Part shown: positions 32,279 through 63,731 of the stretch, in pieces
How the letters are laid out: each line of letters begins with the position of its first letter
Numbering within the stretch: the first letter of the stretch is position 1
DNA from: Synechococcus sp. M44_DOE_062
Lineage (GTDB): Bacteria; Cyanobacteriota; Cyanobacteriia; Thermostichales; Thermostichaceae
DNA: 64,000 bases
NCBI GenBank assembly: GCA_015295985.1
Contig: DVDX01000004.1
Coordinates: forward strand, 1-64,000
Direction of reading: 5' to 3'
Translations under genes and position numbers: made by a program
The notes under the pieces: generated by a model
What the model saw: the letters and a program-made list of their open reading frames with translations, nothing else
The model's database searches: none
What the model was told of the DNA's origin: nothing

Positions 32279-32322
32279 TCTTGGAGACTTTGCAGCTCTC
32301 CCATCTGTTGGGATAAAACTTG

Positions 32323-32352
32323 CCGTTCGCGTTAGCGGGACGGAGTCCTTTG
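32323..32352. repeat. Dispersed repeat copy
   Basis: A single, near-consensus unit (TTCGCGTTAGCGGGACGGAG followed by TCCTTT) in the gap between the RRM gene and the SbcD-like gene. Confidence 0.85.
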
Positions 32353-32392
32353 GTTGTCCTGAATCGCAGACCCAGGGCTGAACAATCTCTGC

Positions 32393-41642: not shown

Positions 41643-42851
41643 TCAGGTTGCAGGACAATTCCCACCTCCTGAGCTACACCGGGTATGAGGCCGAAACCTC
41701 AACCCGATGGGGGATGCCATAACCCCAACTACTGGGACATGGAACTGCCCCAGATACTTTCGTCTCAGATTTACCGCTCCCACACCGTCCCGATGAAATT
41801 GAAAACCACAGGCCCGGCATCGATACTCCCTGCCACTGGGCTTGTGGAGCATGTTGCAGCGCGGGCACTTCTGTGAGGTGTACCGCTCCTCCTGCAGCAC
41901 CACCCGCATCCCCAACCGCTCTGTCTTGTAGGTGAGCATCTGCCGCACCTGCCCCGACAGCATTTGGTGGATTTTCTGATTAACGACCTTGTTGTAGTTG
42001 GCCAACTGCCGGATATCCCGGATGTCCCCAATCACAACTGTCTGCACGCCTCTTGCGTGGAGCGCGGAGACCAGCCTAGTTGTCTGCTTGTGCAAAATGT
42101 CCGCAATTTGTTTGCGCAGCTTAGCCAACTGCTTCTGCTTGGAACGAATCAACCGCTTCCAGCGCCGCGAGCCCCTTTTCTTGCGAGCCATTAGCCTGGA
42201 GAGCTTGCCCTTTAGCTGGTTCTGGTAACGCCTTTTGGAACGCAGCAGCCGCCCGTTGGTAATCAACGTTGCCGCTCCATCGTGAGCCGTTGCCAAATGT
42301 ACTTCTCCCAAATCCACCCCCGCTACTTCTCCATTTTGCGGGGTATCTGCTACCTCTTTTCCTTCCTTTTCTGCGGCTTGGCTCAGGCTGTAACAAGCCC
42401 GCAGTTCATACTGCTTGCCGTCCCAACCAATTTCCACTTGCACTGGGGTATCCCATGGCCAAGGGATCACTACAGGTGGGTTACTCTTGCCATTAGAAAG
42501 AAGCAACTTGCCGTGTTGTACCTTGATGGCAGAAGATTTCCAAATTACCTTGAAATACCGCCGCCTTCTCTTGGGCGGTTTAGCATTGGGATCAGCTTTG
42601 CGTCGCCTGCGCCAAGACTGCAAAGCGGCAAAGAAAGTCTGTATGACCGCATCGGCACTGTGGCTGTGCAGCTCGTTTTGGTTACTGTTGGGAAACCAGC
42701 GCATGAAACTGGCAGATTTCAACCACAAACCTTTCTTGCGTACCACCCGCCAGAAAGCAACCAAGGTTTTGGAGTACAATTCTCCAGCCGCTAAAGCCAG
42801 TCGCTCTAACTGCTCCGAAATTCCTAGTTTTAACCTGCGAACAACGTACAT
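41643..42851 (-). CDS. tnpB: TnpB (OrfB) RNA-guided nuclease-type protein
   Basis: A 402-residue TnpB. The N-terminal helical and beta-barrel region covers about 1-180. RuvC-I is GVDLGEVHLAT, RuvC-II VVIGDIRDIRQ, and a CxxC...CxxC zinc ribbon lies in CPRCNMLHKP/RCRACGFQ. RuvC-III is FHRDGVGAVNL. The usual RuvC-II acidic residue (xxxED) is replaced by Gly, although the next Asp may take its place, so nuclease activity is uncertain. TnpB uses an RNA from the element's end to cut donor DNA and favour retention. The gene is complete, with an ATG start. Confidence 0.9.
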   Translation of the reverse strand: MYVVRRLKLGISEQLERLALAAGELYSKTLVAFWRVVRKKGLWLKSASFMRWFPNSNQNELHSHSADAVIQTFFAALQSWRRRRKADPNAKPPKRRRRYFKVIWKSSAIKVQHGKLLLSNGKSNPPVVIPWPWDTPVQVEIGWDGKQYELRACYSLSQAAEKEGKEVADTPQNGEVAGVDLGEVHLATAHDGAATLITNGRLLRSKRRYQNQLKGKLSRLMARKKRGSRRWKRLIRSKQKQLAKLRKQIADILHKQTTRLVSALHARGVQTVVIGDIRDIRQLANYNKVVNQKIHQMLSGQVRQMLTYKTERLGMRVVLQEERYTSQKCPRCNMLHKPSGREYRCRACGFQFHRDGVGAVNLRRKYLGQFHVPVVGVMASPIGLRFRPHTRCSSGGGNCPAT

Positions 42852-43433: not shown

Positions 43434-43842
43434 GTGCCCACCCTAGAACTCAGCACGGGGCCGGAAAGCAGCCCAATCCTCTCCTGTGGAGTTAAGACTA
43501 ACACAACCGATCGCTCCACCTTACAAGCTGAGGCGCTAACTCTTGCAAAGCTATGCTCTGCACGTCTGTTGTGGGGCAAGACGAGCAACATCATCAAAAA
43601 AGATGATGAAAGGTGGTTTCTCTCCGCCAGAGCACGGACTATGTCCCAGATTCCCTGCTGATGAAGCCACTGACAGCTCAGGTGGTACTGCGTGTAGGTT
43701 AGGAAAGAAACCACGGCCCTACTCGTGCCAACGCCGAAGAGGGATGGGTGCAAGGCTACTTAGCTTTTCTTAGTGGGCCCCCGATGGAGGCTGCATGCAT
43801 CCTGGATCGATTGTCTGCTGCCGAAACCGCAAATGGGTTGTG
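43434..43842. other. Boundary region before the defence island
   Basis: About 410 bases without a convincing gene. On the minus strand a frame at 43430-43753 contains a stretch (VVSFLTYTQYHLSCQWLHQQ) that reads like protein rather than noise and might be a relic of an ORF or insertion sequence, but I cannot name a family. Base composition is more AT-rich around 43570-43620. Confidence 0.4.
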
Positions 43843-46696
43843 ATGCCCGCAGACACGGACGAGACGATTGTTCTCCGCCCCCTCACCGGCACCCCGGAGG
43901 ACGTGGTTTACCTTCACCGGGAACTGATGAATCTGGTGGGCGGTACTCTGCCGTTTGAGCGAGTCACGCCTGCATCCTTCCCGCTGCCCACAGCCGAGGA
44001 CGTTTCCGACGCCACAGGTGCTCGTCTGCTCTGGCAAGCTGCACGGCTTACGCTGCGCGAGGGGGCTACTCCGCTTCGCTCCCTGGGGCGCATTTCCATC
44101 CGGCCACGGACGTACCAATTTGTGCCTCTCCTGATGGCCCTGCGCCTGGATCCCGTGCGGCTGTTTATCGCCGACGACGTTGGCGTAGGCAAAACCATCG
44201 AAGCACTGCTGATAGCTAGGGAGCTTCTAGATCGGGGCGAAATCCGGCGCTTTTGTATCCTCTGCCCACCCTACCTGTGCGAACAATGGGCTAGGGAGCT
44301 GGCGGAAAAGTTCAACCTTGAAGCGACCATCATCCGTTCGGGAACCGTTGGGCAGCTTGAGCGTCAGACACCTGCCGGATGCAGCCTCTATGAACACTTC
44401 CCCGTCCAGGTGGCCAGCATTGATTTTGTGAAAACAGAGCGCAACCGCCATCAGTTTCTGCACTTCTGTCCTGAGCTGGTGATTGCTGACGAAGTGCATG
44501 GAGCGGCAGCAGCTAATTCCGGTAGAGCTCAGCAAGAGCGACATGAACTTCTCAAGTCAATTGCTCAAGACCCCAAGCGCCACCTGATCCTGCTGACGGC
44601 AACTCCCCACAGTGGTATCGAAGACGCCTTTCGTTCCTTGCTGGAACTGCTGCGACCTGAGTTTGAAACCTGGGATCCCCAGGCGCTCGAGGAGGCCCAG
44701 CGGATTGAACTGGCTCGTCACTTCGTCCAGCGCACGCGGCGGGACATCGAGCGGATGTGGGAGGAAACTCCTTGTTTCCCGATACGGAAGGCCACCGACG
44801 AAACCTACACCCTTTCCGAGCAGCAGCGGGAGCTGTTCGAGCGCACCTATGCGTTTTGCTCGGAAATCGTGCGTACCGGCGAAGCATTTGGAAAGGCGTC
44901 GGCGGCGGGTGCGTTACTGGGGCGCTTTGGCGCTCTTGCGCTGCGTTATGTCCAGCCCAGCAGCAGCCCTGGTAGCATTGGCCCCTCGGGCCGGAGTACC
45001 GCTGGCCGAAGAGGAGACAGAGGAATTTGGGCATCTGGTGTTCGAGTCGGCAGAAGGGCGCACCGACGACGAATCGCCCACTTTGGCTCTCGAGGCCACC
45101 GGCGCAACTCCGCAAGAACAAGAAGCAGACCGCCGCCAACTGGGCGAACTCACTCAATTGGCCAACAAACTCCACGGCACGGACGACGACACCAAGCTTC
45201 AGCGGGCCATCAAGATTGTGCGGGATCTGCTAAAGGAAGACTTCCATCCCATCCTGTGGTGCCGGTATGTTGCTACGGCGGAGTACCTTGCAGAGCACCT
45301 GCGCCAGTCGTTGGGAACCACAGCCCAAGTGGTGTGGGTCACCGGTCGCATGGGCGACGATGAGCGGGAAGCGAAAATTGCCGAAATCGAACCTGGCCGT
45401 CCTCGGGTGCTTGTGGCAACGGACTGCCTCTCGGAAGGGGTGAACCTGCAGGAGAAGTTTACGGCTGTTGTTCACTACGACCTGCCGTGGAATCCCAATC
45501 GGCTAGAGCAGCGGGAGGGCCGAGTGGATCGCTATGGCCAAAAGGCCAGGCGGGTTAGGGTCATCCGGTTTTTTGGGCGCGACAACCCCATAGACGGCGT
45601 GGTGCTTGAGGTGCTGCTCGACAAAGCACGGGAGATCCACCGCACCCTGGGCACCCATGTGCCTGTGCCGGAAGCCAGCGAGAGCGTCACACAGGCCGTT
45701 CTCGAAGCCCTCTTCCTGCGCAAGAGACACGGGTCTGCCGAACGCCAGCTTGTGCTGGATCTTGGCGTGCCAGAAGTGGATGAGTTTCATCGGCAGTGGC
45801 AACAGTACGCCGAGCGCGAGCAGATCAACCGCACCCGGTTTGCCCAGCGGGCGCTCAAGCCCGAAGAAGTGCAGCGAGAAGTCGAGGCCACCGATGCTGT
45901 GCTAGGGGATCCCACGGCTGTGCGCGAATTTCTCTTGGCGGCAGCAGAGCGCATTGGTCTGCTTGTTGCCCCGGACAACCGAACGGGTGTCTTTCGGGTG
46001 AGCGTCACTCCAGAGGCAACCAGAACCCTGCCTGAACTGGTCAAGCTGGCCCTGCCCTCCCCCAAGGACGGGCGGTGGCTCATTAGCTTCGACTCGCCCA
46101 CACCTGAAGGGGCGGAATACATTGGCCGAAACCACCGCTTCGTGGCTGCGCTGGCCCGCTACCTCTTTGAGGCAGCCTTGAGCGACTCCAGCCCCAATAG
46201 CAGGGTGGTCTCCCGCTGCGGCGTCCTGCGCACCCGTGCCGTAACCAAACTCACGACCATCCTGCTGCTGCGTGTGCGCTACCTGGTCGAGCAACCTGCC
46301 GCCCGATCCCTTTTATCGGAAGAAGTCCTGGTGCTCGCCTATGTTGGCCTAGGAGGCAGCAATCCCCAGTGGCTGGAGACCGGCGATGCCCTGCGGCTGC
46401 TGGCAGAAGCCCAGCCGGAGGACAACCCCCCTCTGGCTGAGAAGCGGGAGCTGATCCAACAGGTGCTCGACAACCTTGGTAGCTGGCACAGGGATCCCCC
46501 CGCAGCCTGGGGCACAGGGCACCTGCTGCAACAAGCCATCCGGGATCAAGTTATCCGCCGCGCGGACGAACTGACCGCTGCTCACAAACGCATCCGCCAG
46601 GCAGTGGCACTGCGGGTGCGGGGGCTTGAGGTCAAGCCGCAATTTCCGCCGGATCTTCTGGGACTCCTTGTCTTGCAGCCTATGGTGTCGCGATGA
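43843..46696 (+). pseudogene. SNF2-type helicase (DrmD-like), frameshifted
   Basis: About 951 codons in two frames. The first (to about 44,890) holds an N-terminal domain, the ATP loop DDVGVGKTIEA, the motif II box VIADEVHGA and LTATPHSG. The second holds RRRRVRYWGALALLRC, motifs V and VI (ATDCLSEGVNLQEK, QREGRVDRYGQ) and a long C-terminal region. One extra base in GGAAAGGCG (about 44890-44897) restores continuity if removed. The sequence resembles the SNF2 helicase DrmD of class 1 DISARM and related systems. The 3' end overlaps the methyltransferase start by ATGA. No other stops interrupt the gene, so the lesion is recent, or it is an error or a recoding site. Confidence 0.8.
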
Positions 46697-49600
46697 GCCA
46701 GTTCCCTGCTGTACGCCTTGAAGGGGGGCTTTTGGGCCCCGATACGCTGGAAAAGCTCCTTGCCGGTGGGCTTACTGGGCAGAAGCCAAAAGACTTTGGG
46801 CTGGACAACCGGCGCAGCTTGACGGACGAGATTGCCAGTGTCTTTGCCGATGCCCGCGCCCAGTGGGAGGTCTTCCGGCGTCGCCTAGAGCGTCTGCCGG
46901 AGAGCGACTTGGCCACCTCGGTTACTCGCGATAGCTGGTTAATCCCGTTTCTGAGCCTGCTGGGCTATGAGCTGCGCTACAACGCCCGCGCTTACGAAAT
47001 AGACGGTGCCACGTTTGCCATTTCGCATCGAGCTGGAGAGGCGGAGGATGCGCCGCCAGTCCACATTGTCGGGGCCCGGCAGGAGCTGGGGCGTCTGGCT
47101 CCCAGCGGTCGACCTAGGCTTTCGCCCCATTCGCTGGTGCAGGAGTATCTCAACCGCAGCGATCACCTCTGGGGCATTGTAAGCAACGGCCTGAGGCTGC
47201 GCCTTTTGCGAGATTGCACCTTCGTGCGCCGCCAAGCCTACATCGAGTTTGACTTGCAGCAAATCCTGGAGGAGCAGCGCTTTAACGACTTTGCCATCCT
47301 CTACCGGCTGCTGCACCGCAGTCGCCTGCCGCACAGGGCTGAAGATGCCCCAACTTGCCTGCTGGAGCAGTACTACCGGGACGCCTTGGAACAGGGGGGG
47401 CGGGTACGGGATCGGCTGCGGGATGGTGTGGAGCAATGTCTGAAGCGCTTGGCCAACGGCTTTCTGGAGCACTCCAACAACACTGACCTACGGAGGCGGC
47501 TTGACCCAAAGGCCGGCAGCCCAGAGCCCCTCACCCCAGAGGAGTTCTATCGGCAACTGTTGCGCTTGGTCTATCGCTTTCTGTTTTTGCTGGTCTCGGA
47601 GGAGCGGGGGCTGATTAGCGACAATCCTCTCTACCGGGATCACTACAGCGTGACGCGGCTGCGGCGGCTTTTGGATCGGCATGGTGCCTACACCGAGCAT
47701 GAGGATCTGTGGTGCAGCTTGCGGGTGCTGTGGAGGGTGTTCTCGAAGGAAGAGCTGGCCAACCTGTTGAAGGTCTCTCCCCTTAATGGCGAGCTTTTTG
47801 CTCCCCTCGATCTAGACAGCTACAGCCTCAGCAATCGGGCTCTGCTGGAGGCCTTTTGGCATCTATCCTACTATCGAGAAGATGCTTCCGCCCCACCTCG
47901 GCGCGTAAACTATGCGGCGCTGGATGTGGAGGAACTGGGCTCGGTCTATGAAAGCCTGCTCGAATACCACCCTCAGATTGACACCTCGGGAAGGATCCCC
48001 CGCTTTGAGTTGGCCTTCGGGTCGGAGCGCAAGAGCACCGGCTCCTACTACACCCCGCCGGAGCTGGTGGCAGAACTCATCCGTTCGGCGTTGGAGCCGG
48101 TTCTAGCAGAGCGGCTGGCCGAGGCTAAGCGAAGGGCGGATCCTGAACAGGCCCTGCTCTCCCTCCGCGTCCTTGACCCTGCCTGCGGATCGGGACACTT
48201 TCTTTCTGCTGGCTGCTGCCCGACGGCTGGGCAAAGAGCTAGCCAAAATCCGCACCGGCGAAGAGGAACCTGCTCCTGAGCACGTGCGCGAGGCCATCCG
48301 GGATGTGGTGGCCCACTGTCTTTATGGCGTGGACAAAAACCCCTTGGCCGTGGAGCTCTGCCGTGTGGCCCTCTGGCTGGAGGCCCACTGTGCCGGCAAG
48401 CCTCTGACCTTTTTGGATCACCGCATCAAGTGCGGCGACTCGCTGGTGGGGGTGGTGGATCTCAAGGTTTTGGAAAGGGGCATCCCTGATGAAGCCTTCG
48501 ATCCCGTAAGCGCCGACTCTAGGGAGGCTGCCCGCTCTCTGAAGAGGCGAAATCGCACAGAGTGCCAAAATTTGCAGACGGGGCAGCTTTCCCTTCCTCT
48601 TGGCACTGAGCAGGTGGTGGCCGAGCTGAGCCAAGAGCGACAGAAGCTAGAAGCCATTCGAGACGATTCCCCGGCAGATGTGCGCCGCAAACAGGATCTC
48701 TATAGCCGCTACTGCCAAAACCGGGAACACCAAAGGCTGGTGGAAGCCTGCAACCTGTGGACGGCAGCCTTTTTCCAGCTCCTGACCTCTGACTTCTCCA
48801 GAGCCATTACCACCAAGGTGGTGGTTGATCGGCTGGAGGATAGAACCCACCCCCAGGCCCTCGCCACCGCCGCAGCCCTAGCCCTAGAGCATCGCTTTTT
48901 CCACTGGCCACTGGAGTTTCCCGAAACCTTTGAGCAGGGCGGTTTCGACGTGGTGCTCTCCAATCCGCCGTGGGAAATGATACAGCATGACCCAGAAGAA
49001 TTTTTCACCACTCGCGAGCCAACAATTGCTGCTGCTCCTAACATGGCCAAAAGAAGAAAATTGATTGAGAGCCTGCGTAGTAAAAATCCATCTTTATACG
49101 ACGAATTTTTGAATCAACAGCGCATTAATGACTGTTACAAAAACTTTGTTCATGTTTCAGGTAGATTTGCACGCACTGGCAGGGGCAGGATGAATACTGC
49201 CTACGTTTTTGCTGAACTTAGCTTAATGCTCATTGCAAAATCAGGCAGAGTAGGTTTGGTAGTACCAACGGGACTCATGACTGACTCTTTTGCCCAAGAA
49301 TTTTCTTCCAGTGTCATTGAGAACAACCAGCTTGTCAGTCTGTTTGATTTTGAGAACCGCCAGGCTCTCTTTCCAGGTGTGCATCGCAGCTACAAATTCT
49401 GCCTCCTCACCCTGGCAGGGTCATGGCAACCGACGCCAGCCGGCGTGCGCGAAGCGGCGCCGATGGTCTTCGCCTTCTTTGCCACCCATGCCAATCACCT
49501 GCGCGACCCGCGTCGCGTTTTCACCCTCACAGCGGACGACATTGCCCGCATCAACCCCAACACCCGCACCCTGCCGGTCTTCCGCACCCGGCAAGACGCC

Positions 49601-50839
49601 GACCTGACCCGGGCCATCCATGACCGCGTGCCAGTGCTAGCCAATAAAGAGGAAACTGAGAATCCTTGGGGAATCAAGTTCAAATTGATGTTCATGATGA
49701 ACACTGACTCGCACCTCTTCCGCACACGGGCAGAATTGGAGCAGCAGGGGTATCGGTTGGTGGGGAATGTGTTTGTCAGGGGTGAGCCATCCACCGCAAC
49801 GCACTACCTCCCGCTCTACGAAGCCAAAATGATCTGGCACTACGACCACCGCTACGGCACGTATGAAGGCGTGGATTCGCGTTCCAGCACCCAACTGCCC
49901 ACCCCCGACGAGCGCCAGCATGCCGATCCGCACTTCGTCGTTCTGCCCTGGTACTGGGTGCCCGCTGAAGAAGTAATGAAGCGCCTGGGCGACTGGCAGC
50001 GGGGATGGCTGCTTGGCTTCCGCGATGTGGCACGTTCTACCGACGAGCGCACCGCTATCTTCAGCCTGCTGCCCAGAGTCGGGGCAGGACACAAAGTGCC
50101 CCTCATCTTTTCCGAATCCCGATCCTCTGTGCTTATCACAGTATGGTTGGCAAATTTCAGCAGCCTGGTCTTGGATTTTGTCACTCGTCAGAAAATTGGC
50201 GGCACCTCGCTTGGGTTCTTCATTCTACGCCAACTTCCCGTCCTGCCGCCTGTGGCCTACACCCCCGAAGACCTGCGCTTTATCGTCCCGCGCGTACTGG
50301 AACTGACCTGCACCGCCTGGGATCTCAAGCCCTTCGCCGACGATGTGTGGAACGAAGCTGATGACGGGTTGCGGGCAGCCATCCATGCTGCATGGGATGC
50401 GAACTGTATCGCTACCGGCGGGCATGAAGGGCGCCTGCCATCCTGGATCAGCGCTTACCCGGAGATCGAAACCAACCCGCAGAAAGGCATCCCCTTTCCG
50501 CCCTTCCGCTGGGACGAAGACCGCCGCGCGGTGCTGCGCGCCGAACTCGATGCGTACTACGCCTGCCTCTATGGCCTGACCCGCAAGCAACTGCGCTACA
50601 TCCTCGACCCGGCGGATTTGACCGAACGCGAGCTTGCCGACATCCTCGACCCGTGGGAAGAGGTGCGCGACCTGCTCGACCCGGCGGGGTATGCTGCCCG
50701 CGTTGCCGCCAGCACCTTCCCCGGCGAAACCTTTCGCGTGCTGAAGGAGAAGGAAATTCGGCAATTTGGTGAGTACCGCACGCGGCGGCTGGTACTGGAG
50801 GCGTGGGAGAAGCTGGCGCATCACTCAATAAAAGCTTAG
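46693..50839 (+). pseudogene. Gamma-class N6-adenine DNA methyltransferase (DrmMI-like), frameshifted
   Basis: About 1,382 codons. The first frame (46693 to about 48,200) has a 450-residue N-terminal domain and ends at SAM motif I (LDPACGSGHFL). The second carries the rest, including catalytic motif IV SNPPWEMIQ, then a target-recognition region and a C-terminal domain. The break is a duplicated CTTT at 48198-48205; removing one copy gives HFLLAAARRLG. The domain layout matches large methylases of DISARM (DrmMI) and, more distantly, PglX. From about 49,000 the base composition changes. 49,010-49,340 is AT-rich and GGATCC sites vanish until about 51,870, indicating a foreign 3' half. It is cotranscribed with the helicase. 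Confidence 0.8.
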
Positions 50840-50882
50840 AATACACATAGATCTGCATTTCTATACACACAAGGCGCTCCTC

Positions 50883-51086
50883 ATGCGCACCAACATCGTC
50901 CTGGATGACGACCTGATCGAGCGTGCCCGCCAGGTAACCGGCCTCAAGACCAAGCGCGAGGTGATTCACGAAGCGCTGCGTGTCCTGATTCGCCTACACG
51001 AGCAAGCTGAGATCCGCAACTTACGCGGCAAGTTGAAATGGGAGGGCAATTTGCAGCAGCAACGCCTGTCGCGCCTGCAGGACTGA
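50883..51086 (+). CDS. vapB: VapB-type antitoxin
   Basis: A 67-residue protein starting MRTNIVLDDDLIERARQVTG, the ribbon-helix-helix pattern of VapB antitoxins that pair with PIN toxins (LKTKREVIHEALRVLI is the second helix). The basic C-terminal part (NLRGKLKWEGNL) normally wraps the toxin. It would bind its own promoter as well as VapC. The stop is two bases before the vapC start. It lies 43 bases after the methyltransferase stop and has the same foreign-looking composition. Confidence 0.88.
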   Translation: MRTNIVLDDDLIERARQVTGLKTKREVIHEALRVLIRLHEQAEIRNLRGKLKWEGNLQQQRLSRLQD

Positions 51087-51088
51087 GG

Positions 51089-51484
<396 letters not shown>

Positions 51485-51516
51485 GGCGGAGGTGGCCTTC
51501 TGCAGACCAGCTTTCT

Positions 51517-51555
51517 CCTGACATACCCCCTGCCTAAAGGCAAGGGATTCTGGTT
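51517..51555 (+). mobile_element. Fragment of a HEARO/IS605-type end
   Basis: TGACATACCCCCTGCCTAAA followed by GGCAAGGGATTCTGGTTCC matches the first 40 bases of the IsrB-associated omegaRNA copies (read in the forward direction here). The match stops there, so only the element's edge is left. It abuts a copy of the methyltransferase 3' end. Confidence 0.6.
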
Positions 51556-51571
51556 CCTGCGTTCGGAGAAC

Positions 51572-51620
51572 GCTGCAGCCGTCGGCGGGTACTGGAGGTG
51601 TGGGGGAAGCCGGCGCATCG
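51572..51620 (+). pseudogene. Second, truncated copy of the methyltransferase 3' end
   Basis: CGTCGGCGGGTACTGGAGGT and the next 25 bases encode RRRVLEVWGKPAHR. They align with the C terminus of the upstream methyltransferase (RRLVLEAWEKLAHH, near 50781-50826) with only a few differences. It appears to be what remains of the original gene end after a new 3' part and VapBC were inserted. Confidence 0.6.
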
Positions 51621-51752
51621 CCGATCCCACTTCAGAGATATCTTTTTGCCGTTCAGCGGGCCGTAGATCTTGGTGGGTGCGGTTTCAAACACCACTTGCG
51701 GCATCTTCAAGCTAGGCTTGAGCTAACCAAGCGGGCCTTAAGGGCAGATCCG

Positions 51753-54700
51753 ATGTCCACCATCTTTGATCTCCACGCCACTGTTCTGGACGACTATCGC
51801 GATTTTGCCCGCTCCTTTTTTCTCATTGCCGACCAACGGGCGCAAGCCTTTGTGAATCAAGCTCTAGAGGAAGGGATCCACCTCTGGCCAGAGCCTCTCA
51901 TCCAGCTAAGCCCTGCTTATGTACCCGGCCCAACCGTAGACGAGCTGGCCGAGGCTGGGCGCATTGCCCAAGCAACAGCCCGCATTTTCCGCTTTGAAGA
52001 TGGCAGGCCCTTTCGCCTCTACCGCCACCAGGAGGAGGCCATCGCCAAAGCCTTGGCAGGGGAAAGCTTTGTGGTTACCAGCGGCACCGGCTCCGGCAAA
52101 AGCCTTTGCTACTTCCTGCCCATTCTCGACAACTGGATCCGCCAGGGGGGATCCCGTCATCAGGTGGTGGCTATTGTGGTCTACCCCATGAATGCCTTGG
52201 TGAACTCTCAATACCAGTCTTTGCAAGCCCTGTGCGAGCGGTACGAGCGCAACTACCATCGCCCTTTTCCGGTGCGCTTTCCAGATACACCGGGGAAACT
52301 TCGGAAAGCGAACGAGACCAGCTACGGCGGGATCCACCTCAGATCCTGCTCACCAACTACGTGATGGCAGAACTCCTCCTGGTTCGCCCTGAAGATCAGC
52401 GGTTTTTGGCTCCCGAGATGGGCGGGCTGCGCTTTCTGGTCTTCGACGAGCTGCACACCTACCGGGGTCGGCAAGGGGCGGATGTGGCCATGCTGGTTCG
52501 CCGCCTGAAAGGACGCTGTGGGGCCAAGAACCTGGTTCACATCGGCACCAGCGCCACCATGATCTCCCGACCGGAAGCCGACGCCCAGGAGCGCCGCCAG
52601 ACGGTAGCCGCCTTTGCCAGCCGCTTCTTCGGCCATTCCTTCGGGCCGGAGCACATCATTGAGGAAACCCTGGCCCCCCTCACCGAGGGCGGCCCACCCA
52701 CGGTGGCAGAGCTCAAAAGCGCCCTGGACTTGCCTTGCCCCGAAAACCTGGCCGATCTGCGCCGCCATCCCCTGATGCGCTGGCTGGAGCATGAGCTGGG
52801 CCTGGAGCAAAGTCCCGATGGCAGCTTCAGGCGCCGCGTGCCCAGGGAGCTTTCCAAGGTAGCCGCCCAACTGGCCGAGGTGGCCGCCAGGGATCCCGAA
52901 ACCTGCGCCCAATCCCTGCGCCAGTTTCTGGCCCATGCCAGCAGCCTCAAAGAGGGCAGCACCCGGGGAGTTGCCTTTAAGCTGCACCAGTTTATCTCCC
53001 AGGGCCGCACCCTGTACGCCACCTTGGAGAGCCGGGAAAAGCGGCAATTTTCCCTGGAAGGGCAAATGCCAGCTGGGGAAGGAAAGCTGTTTTTCCCCGT
53101 CAAGTTCTGCCGCCAGTGCGGGCACGACTACTACCATGTCCTGAAGGCAAGGGGGCAGTTTTTGCCCCATCCCATCGAAGAAGAGATGGAGGAGGCTGAA
53201 GACCAGCAAGCCGGCTACCTGAGCCTGGATCCCGTTGAAAACGAGTGGTCGCCAGAGCAGATCCCTGAAGATTGGTACACCCCTGAGGGCAGGCTCAAGT
53301 GGAAAAGCCGCGTCCCCCAAGCATTCTGGGTGCGCCCCGACGGATCCTTTTCCGAGCAACCCCAGGCGGAGGCCCAGAAGATGTGGTGGCAGCCCCAGCC
53401 TTTTTCCCTCTGCTTGGCTTGCGGCGAGTACTACACCGCCCGCGAGCGGGAGTTTGTCAAGCTGGCTTCCCTCTCCAGCGAAGGCCGCTCCAGCGCCACC
53501 ACCACCCTTGCCACCTCTCTGTTGCGCCATACGGCCCAGACGCAAGCGGCTCGCGACAAGCTTCTGACTTTTACTGACAATCGCCAAGATGCCTCGCTAC
53601 AAGCCGGCCACTTCAACGACTTTGTCCATGTGGCCCTCCTGCGGGCCTCGCTGTATGCCGCCCTGCAGCCGAAAAAAGAGTTGGGCTTCGCTGAAGTGGC
53701 CCGAGAAGTGGTGCGGGCCTCAGGTCTTAGCCTTGCTGACATTGCCCAGAACCCCTCCTTGGATCCCCAGTCTTCCCTTGCTCAGGACGTTTGGCAGACC
53801 TTTACAGACCTGACAGAATACCGTCTCTACGAAGATCTGCGGCGCGGCTGGCGGGTCACCCATCCCAACCTGGAACAGGTGGGGCTGCTGAAAATCGAAT
53901 ACCGCGGGCTCAAGGAGCTTTGCCAAAGCCCTGCCCTGGCTTCCCTTCACCCTTGGTTTGGCCAAGCAACCGTTGGCGAGCGAGAGGGCCTGCTGCGGGC
54001 CGTATTGGATCAGTTTCGGCGGAAATTGGCCATCGATGTCCGTCTGCTCGAGAAAGAACCCCAGAGAACGCTGCGCCGGCGGGCCGAGCAACATCTCAAC
54101 GAGTTTTGGGGCCTAGAGGAGCATGACGAGCTGCGGACGGCTAGCTGCTTTGTTCGCCAGAGCCAGTCCCGGCAGGACTCGCAAGTTCATAGCTTGGGCC
54201 CCCGCAGCGCTATTGGGCGCTTTCTCATCAAGTATCTCGAGCTGACCAGAGAAGCTTACGACGAGCTTCTGGGATCCCTTCTCTCTTTTCCCTTCTCTCT
54301 TTGCTGGTCGGCTATGGCCTGTTGAGATCTCACCAGAGAAATGGCCAAGAAGCCCATCAACTGGATGCCGGATGTCTCCTCTGGTGCTTGGGAGATGAAT
54401 CTGCCCCCCTTGCGGATCCCTTGTATTCCCGCCGTGCCCAGCAGGAGGGCTACGCTGCCCCCCCCGCTCTGTCAACTCCTTCTTCCAACGCCTGTATCGA
54501 ACTGGAGCAGTAGGGCTGGGATCCCTGGAGGCCAGGGAGCACACTGCCCAAGTGGTTCGGCCAGGAGAGCGGGAGCAGCGAGAAAGGCGCTTTCGCGGGG
54601 AGGATCAAGCTCGACCCCTTCCTTACTTGGTGTGCTCGCCAACCCTGGAGTTGGGGGTCGATATTGCCGATTTGGATCTGGTACATCTGCGCAACGTCCC

Positions 54701-56813
54701 TCCAACGCCGGCCAACTACGCTCAGCGCAGTGGACGCGCAGGCCGCCAGGGGCAACCGGGGCTAATCGTAACGTATTGCAGTGCTTTCAATAGCCATGAC
54801 CAGTACTACTTCCGCCGCCGCGCCGAGATGGTGGCCGGTCGAGTGCGACCTCCCCGCCTGGATTTGGCCAACGAGTCCCTAGTGCGGGCTCACATCCACG
54901 CCGTTTGGCTGGCCCGCGTGCGCCTGCCTCTGGGCAATTCCATCGAAACCGTCATTGACTTGGATCATCGGGAAGAGCTGCCCCTCAGAGAGATGGTGGC
55001 CCAGCAAATCCAACTGGGGGAGGCCGCCCGGCGAGAAGTGGAGGAGCAAGTGCAGAAGCTGCTGGCCGCCGACCGGGAACTCCTAGACAGAAGTGGCTGG
55101 TTTAACAAGCGCTGGATCCGGCAGGTTATTGAAGAGGCGCCACGCGAGTTTGACCGGGCCTTTAACCGCTGGCGGGAGCTGTATCGGGCCGCCACCCAAC
55201 AGTTGGAAGCTGCTCACCAAGAGCTCCAAACAGCACGCCAAAGGGAAAGCCAGCAGAAAGCTGAGCGCCGCCAGCAAGAAGCCCTGCGCCAGCGCAACTT
55301 GCTGTTACAGATCGATACCCAGCGGGAGGAAGGTGACTTTTACCCCTACCGCTATCTGGCCAGCGAAGGGTTCCTCCCTGGCTACAACTTTCCGGCCTTG
55401 CCTGTCCGGGCCTGGGTGCCCCGCGGCAGCGAAGGGGAGTTTATCGCCCGACCCCGGTTTTTGGCCGTTCGGGAGTTCGCACCCCACAACTTCCTCTACC
55501 ACGAAGGCTGCCAGTGGGAATCGGTGGCTTTTCAGGCTCCGCCCGGCGGCCTAGAGGAGCGCAAAAGTACTCAAAAGCTCTGCTTGAGTTGTGGGGCTTT
55601 TGCGGATCCCTGCCTGGATTGCTGCCCCGTCTGCGGCACCCAGTTCGATGGGCAAAACAGCCGGCTGACCCATCTCCTCGAAATGCCCAACGTGCGCATG
55701 AAGCGACGGGATCGCATCACAGCCGATGAAGAAGAGCGGCGGCGGCGGGGATATGAGCTGCAGACCTTCTTTCAATTTGCTCCCAAGGGCTCCGGCTACC
55801 GTGTCCAAGAAGCCGACGTGCTGAGGGGGCAAACTCCCCTGCTTCACTTGCGCTACGCCCCAGCCGCCACCCTGCTGCGTATTAACTACGGCTGGCGGGG
55901 GAGTGGAGGGCAGGGCTTTCTGGTCAACTTTGACACTGGCGAAGTTCTCTCTCCAACTCAGATCCAGCAGAGCAGAACTGGCTCTTCCGACCCAACACGT
56001 TTGCAGCGCGTCTGCCTGGCGGTGCGCAGTACTCAAAACCTCTTGCTGGTGCGCCTGGTTCAACCAGGTCTAGGGGATCCCCAGACCTTGGAGACCAGCC
56101 TGCGCTACGCCCTTAAGCGGGGGATCGAAGAGACTTTCGAGCTGGAGGAGTCGGAGCTAGCCGCCGAGTCCATTGGCCAGGGATCCCATCGGGCCATTCT
56201 CCTCTATGAGACAGCAGAAGGAGGAGCTGGCGTCCTGCGTCGGCTGGTGGAGGAGCCAGAGGCCCTTGCGGAGGTGGCTCAGGCGTCTCTGGAGATCTGC
56301 CACTTCAGACTTTCAGAGGCCGGGGTTCAAGATCTCCGGCCTGAGTGCCGGGCAGCCTGCTACGAGTGCCTGCTGAGCTATGCCAACCAAAGGGAAGCGC
56401 TGGAGCTTGACCGATACAAGATTCGGGATCTTTTGGGTGAGCTGGCCCACAGTCGCACTGACCCAGGCAGCTCCCGACAAGAGCACTGGGATTGGCTACG
56501 CCAGCTCGTTGACCCTCGGTCTGAACTGGAGCGCAAGTTTCTCGAGGCGCTGGCAGAAGGAGGGTATCGATTGCCTGACGATGCCCAGAAGTCCATCAGT
56601 GAGCCCCGCTGTGTTGTCGATTTCTTCTATGACCTCAATATCTGCGTCTTTTGTGATGGCGCAGTCCACGATGAGCCAACTCAAGCCGAGCAGGATCGCC
56701 AACTGCGGGCTCAGCTCCTAGAAGGCGGCTACCGCGTGATTGTCCTGCGCTACGACCAGAATCTTCAGGAGCAACTGGCTCGCTATCCAGAAGTGTTTGG
56801 CCAGGGGAACTGA
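51753..56813 (+). pseudogene. DEAD/DEAH helicase-DUF1998-nuclease fusion, frameshifted three times
   Basis: About 1,687 codons. In order: Walker A TSGTGSGKS near residue 113, VFDELHTYRG (DEAH-type box), GTSATM, zinc-like pairs (CRQCGHDY, CLACGEYY), motif VI QRSGRAGRQGQ, and another Cys cluster (CLSCGAFADPC, CCPVCG). A DUF1998 domain (LLYETAEGGAGVLRRL, CRAACYECLLSYANQ) and a C-terminal nuclease-like segment (VVDFFYDLNICVFCDGAVHD) complete it. Single-base losses at about 52,280 (in CGCTTTCC), about 54,300 (in CTCTTTGC) and in the C8 tract at 54458-54465 break the frame. The DUF1998 helicase recalls DruE of Druantia and DrmA/DrmB of DISARM. The start is ATG 51753. GGATCC sites are frequent, so this gene is long resident. 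Confidence 0.8.
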
Positions 56814-61740: not shown

Positions 61741-62091
61741 TTAGTGCATCACCACTTTAACGTTGGCGTTGTTCAGGCCAGGACGCTTCACCTCGGCCAA
61801 GGTCTTGTTGACGGCATACTTCTGGTTGATGGAGTTGATCAACTCGGTCTGGTTGTGCTTCTTGGCCACGCCCCACAGATCGGCGATCAGGTCGTAGGAA
61901 CCATCGGGATTCTTCGACCAGCCCAGATCGTAGTCGCCTTCCAACTGAGCCACGATGTCAGCGCGAACACGCTGGCCGTTGTAGCCACGCACGTCGGCGT
62001 TCAGCTTAACGGTGTAGCCGAGATCGCGCAGAGAGTTGATCAGGATTTGGCTGTCGGTGATTTTGGTACGCAGGGTGCTAAAATGAGACAT
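61741..62091 (-). CDS. ycf35: Ycf35 / DUF1257 protein
   Basis: A 116-residue protein beginning MSHFSTLRTKITDSQILINSL. DUF1257 (Ycf35) is conserved in cyanobacteria and some algal plastids; the function is unknown. Conserved parts are GYTVKLNADVRGYNGQRVRADIVAQLEG, DLGWSKNPDGSYDLIADLWGV and the closing VKRPGLNNANVKVVMH. The start is ATG 62091, with GGAGAG upstream; a longer open frame to 62286 covers only the intergenic region. It lies 128 bases downstream of ycf46 on the same strand, the usual neighbourhood of the two genes. Confidence 0.9.
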   Translation of the reverse strand: MSHFSTLRTKITDSQILINSLRDLGYTVKLNADVRGYNGQRVRADIVAQLEGDYDLGWSKNPDGSYDLIADLWGVAKKHNQTELINSINQKYAVNKTLAEVKRPGLNNANVKVVMH

Positions 62092-62219
62092 GGTGTTTCT
62101 CTCCTGTGTGTAGGGGTTGGAACATCGACACAAACAATCAATGGGCACTGTTCTTTGGGGAAGGTTTAGGCTTTGCTGTCCCTGCCTCTGCCAAGGCAGT
62201 TTTGGATCCTCACCTCCTC

Positions 62220-63731
62220 CTAGAACTCCAGCCGCTGGTACTCGGCTACAGAGGCTGCTGCAGGCCGAGCCCGCTGCTGGGCCCATTCCCTCAACGCTAC
62301 CACTTGCTCCATCATGGTGCGAGATAGCGGTTGAGTTGCTTTCGTTGCTGCCAAAATGTCCAGTTGGGTAAATTCGCGGTTCTGGGCAAACGCTTCGTAC
62401 ATGGCAGCAATCAAAACTTGTTCAATCTCCGCGCCGGAGAAGCCTTCACAGGCCGCAGCCAACTGGCGCAGATCAAAGCGGCTAATGTCGCGCCGCCGCT
62501 TCTTCAGGTGGATCTCGAAAATCTCCATCCGCTCGTTAATGTTGGGGAGATCCACGAAGAAAATCTCGTCAAAACGGCCCTTGCGCAAGAATTCGCCTGG
62601 CAGACGATCCACACGGTTGGCCGTAGCCATGACAAAGACCGGTGAGCGCTTTTCCTGCATCCAGGTCAGGAAAGAGCCAAAGATGCGGCTAGAGGTGCCC
62701 CCGTCGGAATCACTGGAGCCTGCTGACCCGGCAAAGGCTTTGTCCAGCTCGTCGATGAAAAGGATGGCAGGGGCGAGAGATTCAGCAGTCCGCAGGGCAC
62801 TCCGCAGATTAGCCTCCGATTTGCCCACCATGGAGCCATCATAAACGCGGCCCATGTCCAGGCGCAGCAGGGGCAAGCCCCAGAGACGAGCCGTGGTTTT
62901 GGCAATCAGCGACTTGCCACAGCCGGGTACGCCCAGGATCAGCATGCCCTTGGGCTGAGGCAGTCCATAGGCGCGGGCCCGCTCGGTAAAAGCCTCAGAA
63001 CGTTGTAGCAGCCAGCGCTTCAGCTCCTCCAGACCACCAACGGCATCAATGGTCTCATCTTCTTCGATAAACTCAAGAATGCCGTTGCGGCGAATGAGCT
63101 GCTTCTTCTCAGAGAGGATAATGTCCACTTCCGCCTCGCTGAGACGACCGTGCATCACCACAGCCTTGCGGTAGACTTTCTCTGCTTCGTCTTGTGTCAG
63201 GCCCAGGGCTGCCTTGAGCAGCTTTTCGCGGGTGTCGGGAGCCAAGGGTAGAGAGCGCGGGATCTGCTCCAGTTGGCGGTTGAGGGTGCGCTCCAATGTG
63301 GCCATATCCGGCAGGGGGAAATCCACCACCGAGATGTCTTTTTCCAGTTCGACGGGGATCACCTGCACCGGAGACATGAGAAGGATGGTTTTGTGGGATC
63401 CCTTCAGGCTGGCAATAGCATCCCGTAGCCAGCGCTTCACCTCAGTGTTGTCCAAAAAGTCGTGCAAGTCTTTGAAGACACAGATGGCGGGATCCTTTTG
63501 CTCCATCACCCATTGAATGGCAGGCTGGGGGGACTGGGTGTTGTGCTGGGTGAGGCTGCGGGGGTTGCCGTATTCGACAATGCCGTGGGTAACTGTCCAA
63601 ATGAATAGGCGTCGCTGGGGCTTGAGGGTGCGGGCAATCGCTGCCAGAGCCGCCTCTGCCCGTTCCTCCTCTGGAGTAAGCAGGTACAGCAGTGGGTATT
63701 GAGCTTGAATGAGGATGCTTAGCTCTTGCAT
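62220..63731 (-). CDS. ycf46: Ycf46 AAA ATPase
   Basis: A 503-residue AAA+ protein. The N-terminal 230 residues are a degenerate ATPase-like domain (FIWTVTHGIVEY, ICVFKDLHDFL). The C-terminal AAA module has Walker A LGVPGCGKSLIAKTTA, Walker B AILFIDELDKAFAG, sensor 1 FVMATANRVDRLPGEF and the arginine-finger region RKGRFDEIFF, so ATP hydrolysis is likely. Ycf46 is conserved in cyanobacteria and red-algal plastids and has been linked to carbon-dioxide use. The start is ATG 63731 (MQELSIL). The remaining 270 bases to the window end show no gene. Confidence 0.93.
   Translation of the reverse strand: MQELSILIQAQYPLLYLLTPEEERAEAALAAIARTLKPQRRLFIWTVTHGIVEYGNPRSLTQHNTQSPQPAIQWVMEQKDPAICVFKDLHDFLDNTEVKRWLRDAIASLKGSHKTILLMSPVQVIPVELEKDISVVDFPLPDMATLERTLNRQLEQIPRSLPLAPDTREKLLKAALGLTQDEAEKVYRKAVVMHGRLSEAEVDIILSEKKQLIRRNGILEFIEEDETIDAVGGLEELKRWLLQRSEAFTERARAYGLPQPKGMLILGVPGCGKSLIAKTTARLWGLPLLRLDMGRVYDGSMVGKSEANLRSALRTAESLAPAILFIDELDKAFAGSAGSSDSDGGTSSRIFGSFLTWMQEKRSPVFVMATANRVDRLPGEFLRKGRFDEIFFVDLPNINERMEIFEIHLKKRRRDISRFDLRQLAAACEGFSGAEIEQVLIAAMYEAFAQNREFTQLDILAATKATQPLSRTMMEQVVALREWAQQRARPAAASVAEYQRLEF

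What the first reader, a model, noticed from the sequence alone, without database searches (positions are those of the whole stretch)
43843..56813. DISARM/Druantia-like three-gene defence island with an unusual helicase-DUF1998-nuclease fusion
The sequence shows an SNF2 helicase overlapping a large gamma-class adenine methyltransferase, then VapBC, then a roughly 1,690-codon DEAD/DEAH helicase with DUF1998 and a nuclease-like end. The first two match class 1 DISARM DrmD-DrmMI as known. The third is neither a clean DrmA nor DrmB. It seems to combine helicase, DUF1998 and a PD-(D/E)XK/Vsr-like module, closer to Druantia DruE. The combination may be a distinct system architecture. Assignment to a named system is inference.
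Basis: partly seen in the sequence, partly recalled or inferred. Interest (0 to 1): 0.8.

Follow-up and report, generated by a model that had tools for sequence, protein, structure and literature searches.

The report
Broken ARMADA Type I defence operon
This is a hot-spring cyanobacterium's copy of a recently described three-gene anti-phage system (ARMADA Type I), and in this genome all three genes are disrupted by frameshifts, so it is a decaying member of a known kind and not a new architecture.

Summary
The three proteins are present, but they belong neither to DISARM nor to Druantia. The locus (43795-56813) is an ARMADA Type I operon (Bell et al. 2025, PMC12458937): ArmA (DrmD/RapA-like helicase), ArmB (PglX/DrmMI-like adenine methyltransferase) and ArmC (YprA helicase with DUF1998/MZB and a C-terminal Vsr/EDxHD nuclease). 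The order is the A-B-C order reported for many cyanobacteria. All 34 related loci with full flanks, from many phyla, carry A and B beside C. ArmC falls in one clade with them, apart from E. coli ARMADA II and a Druantia III DruE. The C-terminal 142 residues model well (pLDDT 90), and their best credible structural match is the EDxHD homing endonuclease I-Bth0305I. So the "unusual fusion" is real but already published. What is specific to this window: five frameshifts break all three genes, while 33 flanking orthologues are intact and two sister genomes hold intact operons. The likeliest reading is recent pseudogenisation. VapBC is a strain-variable insert (98.6% identical to one sister, absent from the other). 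ArmB also carries a foreign A+T-rich segment. A side lead, outside the window: relatives' ArmB, PriA and other genes carry in-frame DUF559 nuclease inserts bounded by palindromic repeats, which look like a mobile element.

The parts
43795..46696 (+). armA: SNF2/RapA/DrmD-like helicase; pseudogene, one frameshift (+1 nt) near 44881
46693..50839 (+). armB: PglX/DrmMI-like adenine methyltransferase (DPACGSG, NPPW); pseudogene, +4 nt frameshift near 48203, directly after the SAM motif
49000..49460 (+). foreign segment within armB after NPPW: A+T-rich (40-45% GC) and only 37-47% identical to both sister ArmBs, which are 82-83% identical to each other there
49776..49804 (+). site where sister genomes' ArmB holds a palindrome-bounded DUF559 insert; no insert here
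50883..51086 (+). vapB antitoxin (PF09957)
51089..51484 (+). vapC toxin, PIN domain; the VapBC segment is 98.6% identical to G004 and absent from G001
51753..56813 (+). armC: YprA-family DEAD/DEAH helicase; pseudogene, frameshifts near 52281 (-1), 54285-54303 (+14) and 54443 (-1)
56100..56372 (+). MZB/DUF1998 zinc-binding domain of armC
   Evidence: PF09369, E 3.6e-10
56385..56810 (+). C-terminal Vsr/EDxHD nuclease domain of armC; E49, D79, D91, H95, D104 of the fragment present
41646..42851 (-). TnpB-like IS605 OrfB upstream of the operon, inside a ~3 kb stretch absent from G004 at this site

Best explanation
The locus is an ARMADA Type I operon in the A-B-C order, recently inactivated in this genome. 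In intact form (shown in two sister genomes) the inferred mechanism is: ArmB methylates adenines in a host sequence motif and marks self DNA. ArmA, a RapA-like translocase, and ArmC, a 3'-5' YprA-type helicase, load on unmarked incoming phage DNA. ArmC's C-terminal Vsr/EDxHD nuclease then cuts it, stopping the phage without killing the cell. Shown here: gene content, order, phylogenetic placement, catalytic motifs, nuclease fold, and the frameshifts. Inferred: self-marking, loading order, and non-abortive direct defence (the last shown experimentally only for ARMADA Type II in E. coli, PMC12458937).
For: Partner conservation: 80 ArmC loci from many phyla; 34 of 34 with >=8.5 kb on both sides hold ArmA and ArmB; order C-A-B in 41, A-B-C in 12. 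Tree: window ArmC with G001/G004 inside an 86-row clade separated with 100% SH-aLRT from E. coli ARMADA II (L110) and Klebsiella Druantia III DruE (L112). Nuclease: EDxHD residues conserved in 77-80 of 84 homologues; AF2 pLDDT 90; I-Bth0305I 3r3p probability 0.97 (E 0.06); DUF559 Pfam hits in 41 of 48 homologues. Paper: Type I = YprA + BrxHII/RapA-like + PglX-like, A-B-C order in many cyanobacteria, predicted active C-terminal Vsr. Inactivation: five frameshifts in the three genes, two of them +4 and +14 nt; 33 flanking orthologues (32.9 kb) in one frame each; no second copy in the genome.
Against: No experiment exists for Type I. The BrxA-like insertion after RecA1 that the paper uses as a shared derived feature gave no PDB match with my model, so that feature is unconfirmed. 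Foldseek E-values for the nuclease are weak (best 0.06). The tree is a quick one, with long branches on the outgroups. Local assembly error cannot be formally excluded without reads. Two other open frames tested also split (61744-62368 and 63928-64819).
Confidence: 0.88

Rival explanations
1. The frameshifts are assembly or sequencing errors and the operon is intact and working, as in the sister genomes.
For: Codon-position pattern of changes private to the window is still that of a gene under purifying selection (64% at third positions in the 3' part of armC, against 59-66% in sisters), and all catalytic motifs remain. The assembly is a 90-contig draft.
Against: Five shifts in 12.7 kb against none in 33 flanking orthologues over 32.9 kb; two are +4 and +14 nt indels, not single-base homopolymer slips.
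Confidence: 0.15
2. A degenerate or variant class 1 DISARM.
For: ArmA and ArmB are homologues of DrmD and DrmMI (PADLOC 318 and 279 bits).
Against: No DrmA, DrmB or DrmC; ArmA below the DrmD cut-off (357 of 610 bits); ArmC's DrmA score is 47 bits against 319 for DruE; the split DrmA/DrmB that typifies DISARM is absent.
Confidence: 0.03
3. A Druantia variant built on DruE.
For: ArmC's best PADLOC models are DruE3 and DruE1, and its best solved relative is a 2108-residue DEAD/DEAH helicase, 9tu7.
Against: No DruH or other Druantia partner; the nuclease is Vsr-like, not the two PLD domains reported for Druantia III DruE; ArmC separates from DruE III in the tree.
Confidence: 0.03
4. A type II/IIG restriction-modification gene that happens to sit beside two repair helicases.
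For: ArmB has type IIG-like profile hits.
Against: Three-gene linkage in 34 of 34 full-context loci across phyla.
Confidence: 0.01

Closest known systems
ARMADA Type I (Bell et al. 2025, PMC12458937)
   Same: BrxHII/RapA-like helicase, PglX-like methyltransferase, YprA helicase with DUF1998 and C-terminal Vsr-type nuclease; A-B-C order as in many cyanobacteria.
   Different: All three genes broken here; VapBC sits between ArmB and ArmC; ArmC is closest to non-cyanobacterial homologues (66% to a Terriglobia MAG), not to the main cyanobacterial clade.
ARMADA Type II (E. coli, L110)
   Same: Same three gene families in the same A-B-C order.
   Different: Type II adds ArmD (RelE-like fused to a UvrD/GajB-like helicase) and a longer ArmC (2113 aa); no ArmD here.
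DISARM class 1
   Same: DrmD and DrmMI homologues.
   Different: No DrmA/DrmB/DrmC; helicase and DUF1998 are in one protein fused to a nuclease.
Druantia III (DruH + DruE)
   Same: YprA-family helicase related to ArmC.
   Different: Partner is DruH; DruE carries PLD nuclease domains (PMC13192584).
MrfA/YprA (6znp)
   Same: Helicase core and MZB domain.
   Different: Short (751 aa), repair function, no fused nuclease.

Membership tests
ARMADA Type I | YprA-family helicase with DUF1998/MZB in the same polypeptide | tested here: met
   DEAD, Helicase_C and MZB above cut-off in intact sister ArmC; same domains in window frames
[quoted passage not shown]
ARMADA Type I | C-terminal Vsr-type nuclease with catalytic residues | tested here: met
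   EDxHD residues conserved, AF2 model and 3r3p match; activity untested
ARMADA Type I | ArmC within the Type I clade of the YprA tree | tested here: met
   only one Type II and one DruE reference, long branches
ARMADA Type I | BrxA-like domain inserted after RecA1 | tested here: inconclusive
   helical domain modelled (pLDDT 89) but no PDB match
ARMADA Type I | anti-phage activity | not testable with these tools
   shown only for Type II in the paper; genes broken here
ARMADA Type II | ArmD (RelE-GajB-like helicase) after ArmC | tested here: not met
   next gene is an ABC-2 permease on the other strand
DISARM class 1 | drmA, drmB (and drmC) | tested here: not met
   no such genes in the operon
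DISARM class 1 | DrmD equivalog score | tested here: not met
   356.8 bits, cut-off 610
Druantia | Druantia partner gene (DruH in type III) next to DruE | tested here: not met
   none among neighbours; compare L112
VapBC | VapB antitoxin plus PIN toxin | tested here: met
   PF09957 E 2.7e-17; NF047959 150 bits, cut-off 80

The most novel reading that the evidence does not exclude
ARMADA methyltransferases, and other proteins such as PriA, are repeatedly invaded by an undescribed mobile element. It is an EDxHD/DUF559 nuclease bounded by inverted palindromic repeats (GCCCTCACCCCC...GGGGGTGAGGGC) that inserts in frame and is translated as part of the host protein, without intein splicing. In sister genomes it sits in ArmB at the site that is empty in this window. 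ArmC's own related C-terminal nuclease could be a domesticated relative.
Probability: 0.35. Interest if true: 0.65.

Novelty: new member of a known kind. Interest (0 to 1): 0.3.

Why it matters
It gives a hot-spring cyanobacterial example of ARMADA Type I, a type with no experimental test in the paper. The genus provides a natural series: intact operon (G001), intact with VapBC (G004), broken (this genome), and no ArmC match (G002, G003). That would allow a test of whether loss or decay follows phage pressure or cost. The in-frame DUF559 inserts seen in relatives would matter more if confirmed as a mobile element.

Tried and rejected
A 64 kb DNA query was too long. An early idea that the window's ArmB has a different C-terminus from its sisters was wrong: the sisters have a DUF559 insert and the rest aligns. 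BrxA-like domain by fold search: no match. The PADLOC top label for ArmA, one DpdE model (PDLC02853, 612 bits), was not taken as Dpd membership: no Dpd partners were seen, and the NCBIfam DpdE model scores 186 of 500. In one search some G004/G001 rows were out of frame, so only the rows without a stop warning or inflated counts were used. Literature search for DUF559 as a palindrome-bounded mobile element found nothing.

Full report
WHAT IS THERE. Three large co-directional genes and a small toxin-antitoxin pair occupy 43795-56813 on the + strand. Profile searches identify an SNF2/RapA-type helicase, an Eco57I/DrmMI-like adenine methyltransferase, VapB and VapC, and a DEAD/DEAH helicase with an MZB (DUF1998) domain. 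The window is contig 12 of a 2.93 Mb, 90-contig genome. Two same-genus genomes, G001 (2,932,766 bp) and G004 (3,046,682 bp), carry the same operon at the same chromosomal place with open reading frames of 964, 1525/1519 and 1685/1734 aa. Their sizes match, from memory, Synechococcus JA-3-3Ab and JA-2-3B'a(2-13), which would make this a Yellowstone-type hot-spring cyanobacterium; that is recall, not a test.

BROKEN GENES. Against these relatives the window has a +1 shift in armA (~44881), a +4 shift in armB directly after the SAM motif (~48203), and -1, +14 and -1 shifts in armC (~52281, ~54285-54303, ~54443). Thirty-three other orthologues around the operon (32.9 kb) each align in a single frame; two further open frames (61744-62368 and 63928-64819) also split. 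The genome holds no other copy of any of the three genes. The +4 and +14 indels are not homopolymer slips. Changes private to the window still fall mainly at third codon positions, so the loss is probably recent. Reads are needed to exclude a local assembly fault.

WHAT IT IS. A scan of 84,980 species genomes with the ArmC alignment returned 80 loci from many phyla. All 34 with at least 8.5 kb on both sides contain homologues of the first two genes; the order is C-A-B in 41 loci and A-B-C in 12. A tree places the window protein with G001 and G004 inside this group, apart from an annotated E. coli four-gene cassette with the ARMADA Type II layout (L110) and a Klebsiella Druantia III-type DruE (L112). 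Its nearest relatives outside the genus are Terriglobia, Acidobacteria and Limisphaera MAGs, not other cyanobacteria, which suggests horizontal gain (inference). This is what Bell et al. (PMC12458937) named ARMADA Type I, including the statement that in many cyanobacteria the A-B pair precedes the YprA gene and that the C-terminus is a predicted active Vsr nuclease.

THE NUCLEASE END. In 84 homologues E660, D690, D702, H706 and D715 (numbering of the window's 753-aa ORF) are conserved in 77 to 80 sequences; the window copy has all five. The last 142 residues model at pLDDT 90. The closest credible solved structure is the EDxHD homing endonuclease domain I-Bth0305I, 3r3p, probability 0.97 but E 0.06, which a profile search also finds (E 0.026). 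Pfam DUF559 hits 41 of 48 homologues weakly.

MECHANISM. From the families: ArmB probably marks self DNA, ArmA and ArmC translocate on and unwind unmarked DNA, and ArmC's tail cuts it. The paper shows for Type II that all components and the Walker A and NPPW motifs are needed and that defence is not abortive. Nothing has been shown for Type I. In this genome the system should be inactive.

MOSAIC FEATURES. The VapBC segment (about 50.8-51.75 kb) is 98.6% identical to G004, while flanking armC is 80-88% identical, and it is absent from G001. Other A-B-C loci also carry toxin-like genes between ArmB and ArmC: PIN in L053, L054 and L111, a RelE/ParE-UvrD fusion like ArmD in L054 and L056 (with a homologous ORF in L070), and TumE in L056. 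ArmB 49.0-49.46 kb is A+T-rich and only 37-47% identical to both sisters, which agree with each other at 82-83%: a segment swap behind the NPPW motif.

SIDE LEAD. G001 and G004 ArmB carry a ~172-aa in-frame DUF559 insert (Pfam E 3e-35) with inverted palindromic ends, absent from the window. In 117 genomes of the phylum, DUF559 relatives occur in 66. Of 30 fetched, 13 lie inside larger open frames, and 12 of those 13 have the palindromes at their edges, against 3 of 17 others; the repeats are about 13 times denser near the insert than elsewhere in the same loci. Hosts include PriA just before its Walker A motif and adenine methyltransferases, among them another ArmB with the insert at a different place. 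I found no paper on this in the held library, which lacks most subscription journals.

VERDICT. The local news is inactivation and mosaicism of one member.

Noticed in passing
L014:12900-13400 and L015:13390-13900 (ArmB of G001 and G004); L113, L114, L116-L118, L121-L123, L129, L133, L140, L141: DUF559 nuclease domains inserted in frame in ArmB, PriA (just before Walker A), other methyltransferases and further proteins, bounded by inverted palindromic repeats (CCCTCACCCC / CTCTCCC...GGGAGAG / GGGGTGAGGG). They look like an in-frame mobile element without splicing.
   Followed up: partly
window 49000-49460: A+T-rich foreign segment inside armB behind the NPPW motif, suggesting a segment swap in the methyltransferase.
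   Followed up: partly
window 50800-51750: VapBC block 98.6% identical to G004 within an operon that is otherwise 75-88% identical, and absent from G001: a recent exchange.
   Followed up: partly
L054:7589-9673, L056:7594-9666, L070:7426-9576: A RelE/ParE-like plus UvrD helicase fusion (shown by Pfam in L054 and L056; homologous ORF in L070), resembling the Type II gene ArmD, lies between ArmB and ArmC in cyanobacterial A-B-C loci.
   Followed up: partly
L057, L061, L064, L100 (ArmC C-termini): Chloroflexota ArmC proteins whose C-terminal nuclease motifs are degenerate or missing.
   Followed up: no
window 32319-32353: A ~30-bp sequence repeated at many places in all five same-genus genomes searched.
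   Followed up: no
window 63928 to contig position 64819: Another open frame that is split into three frames relative to G004.
   Followed up: no
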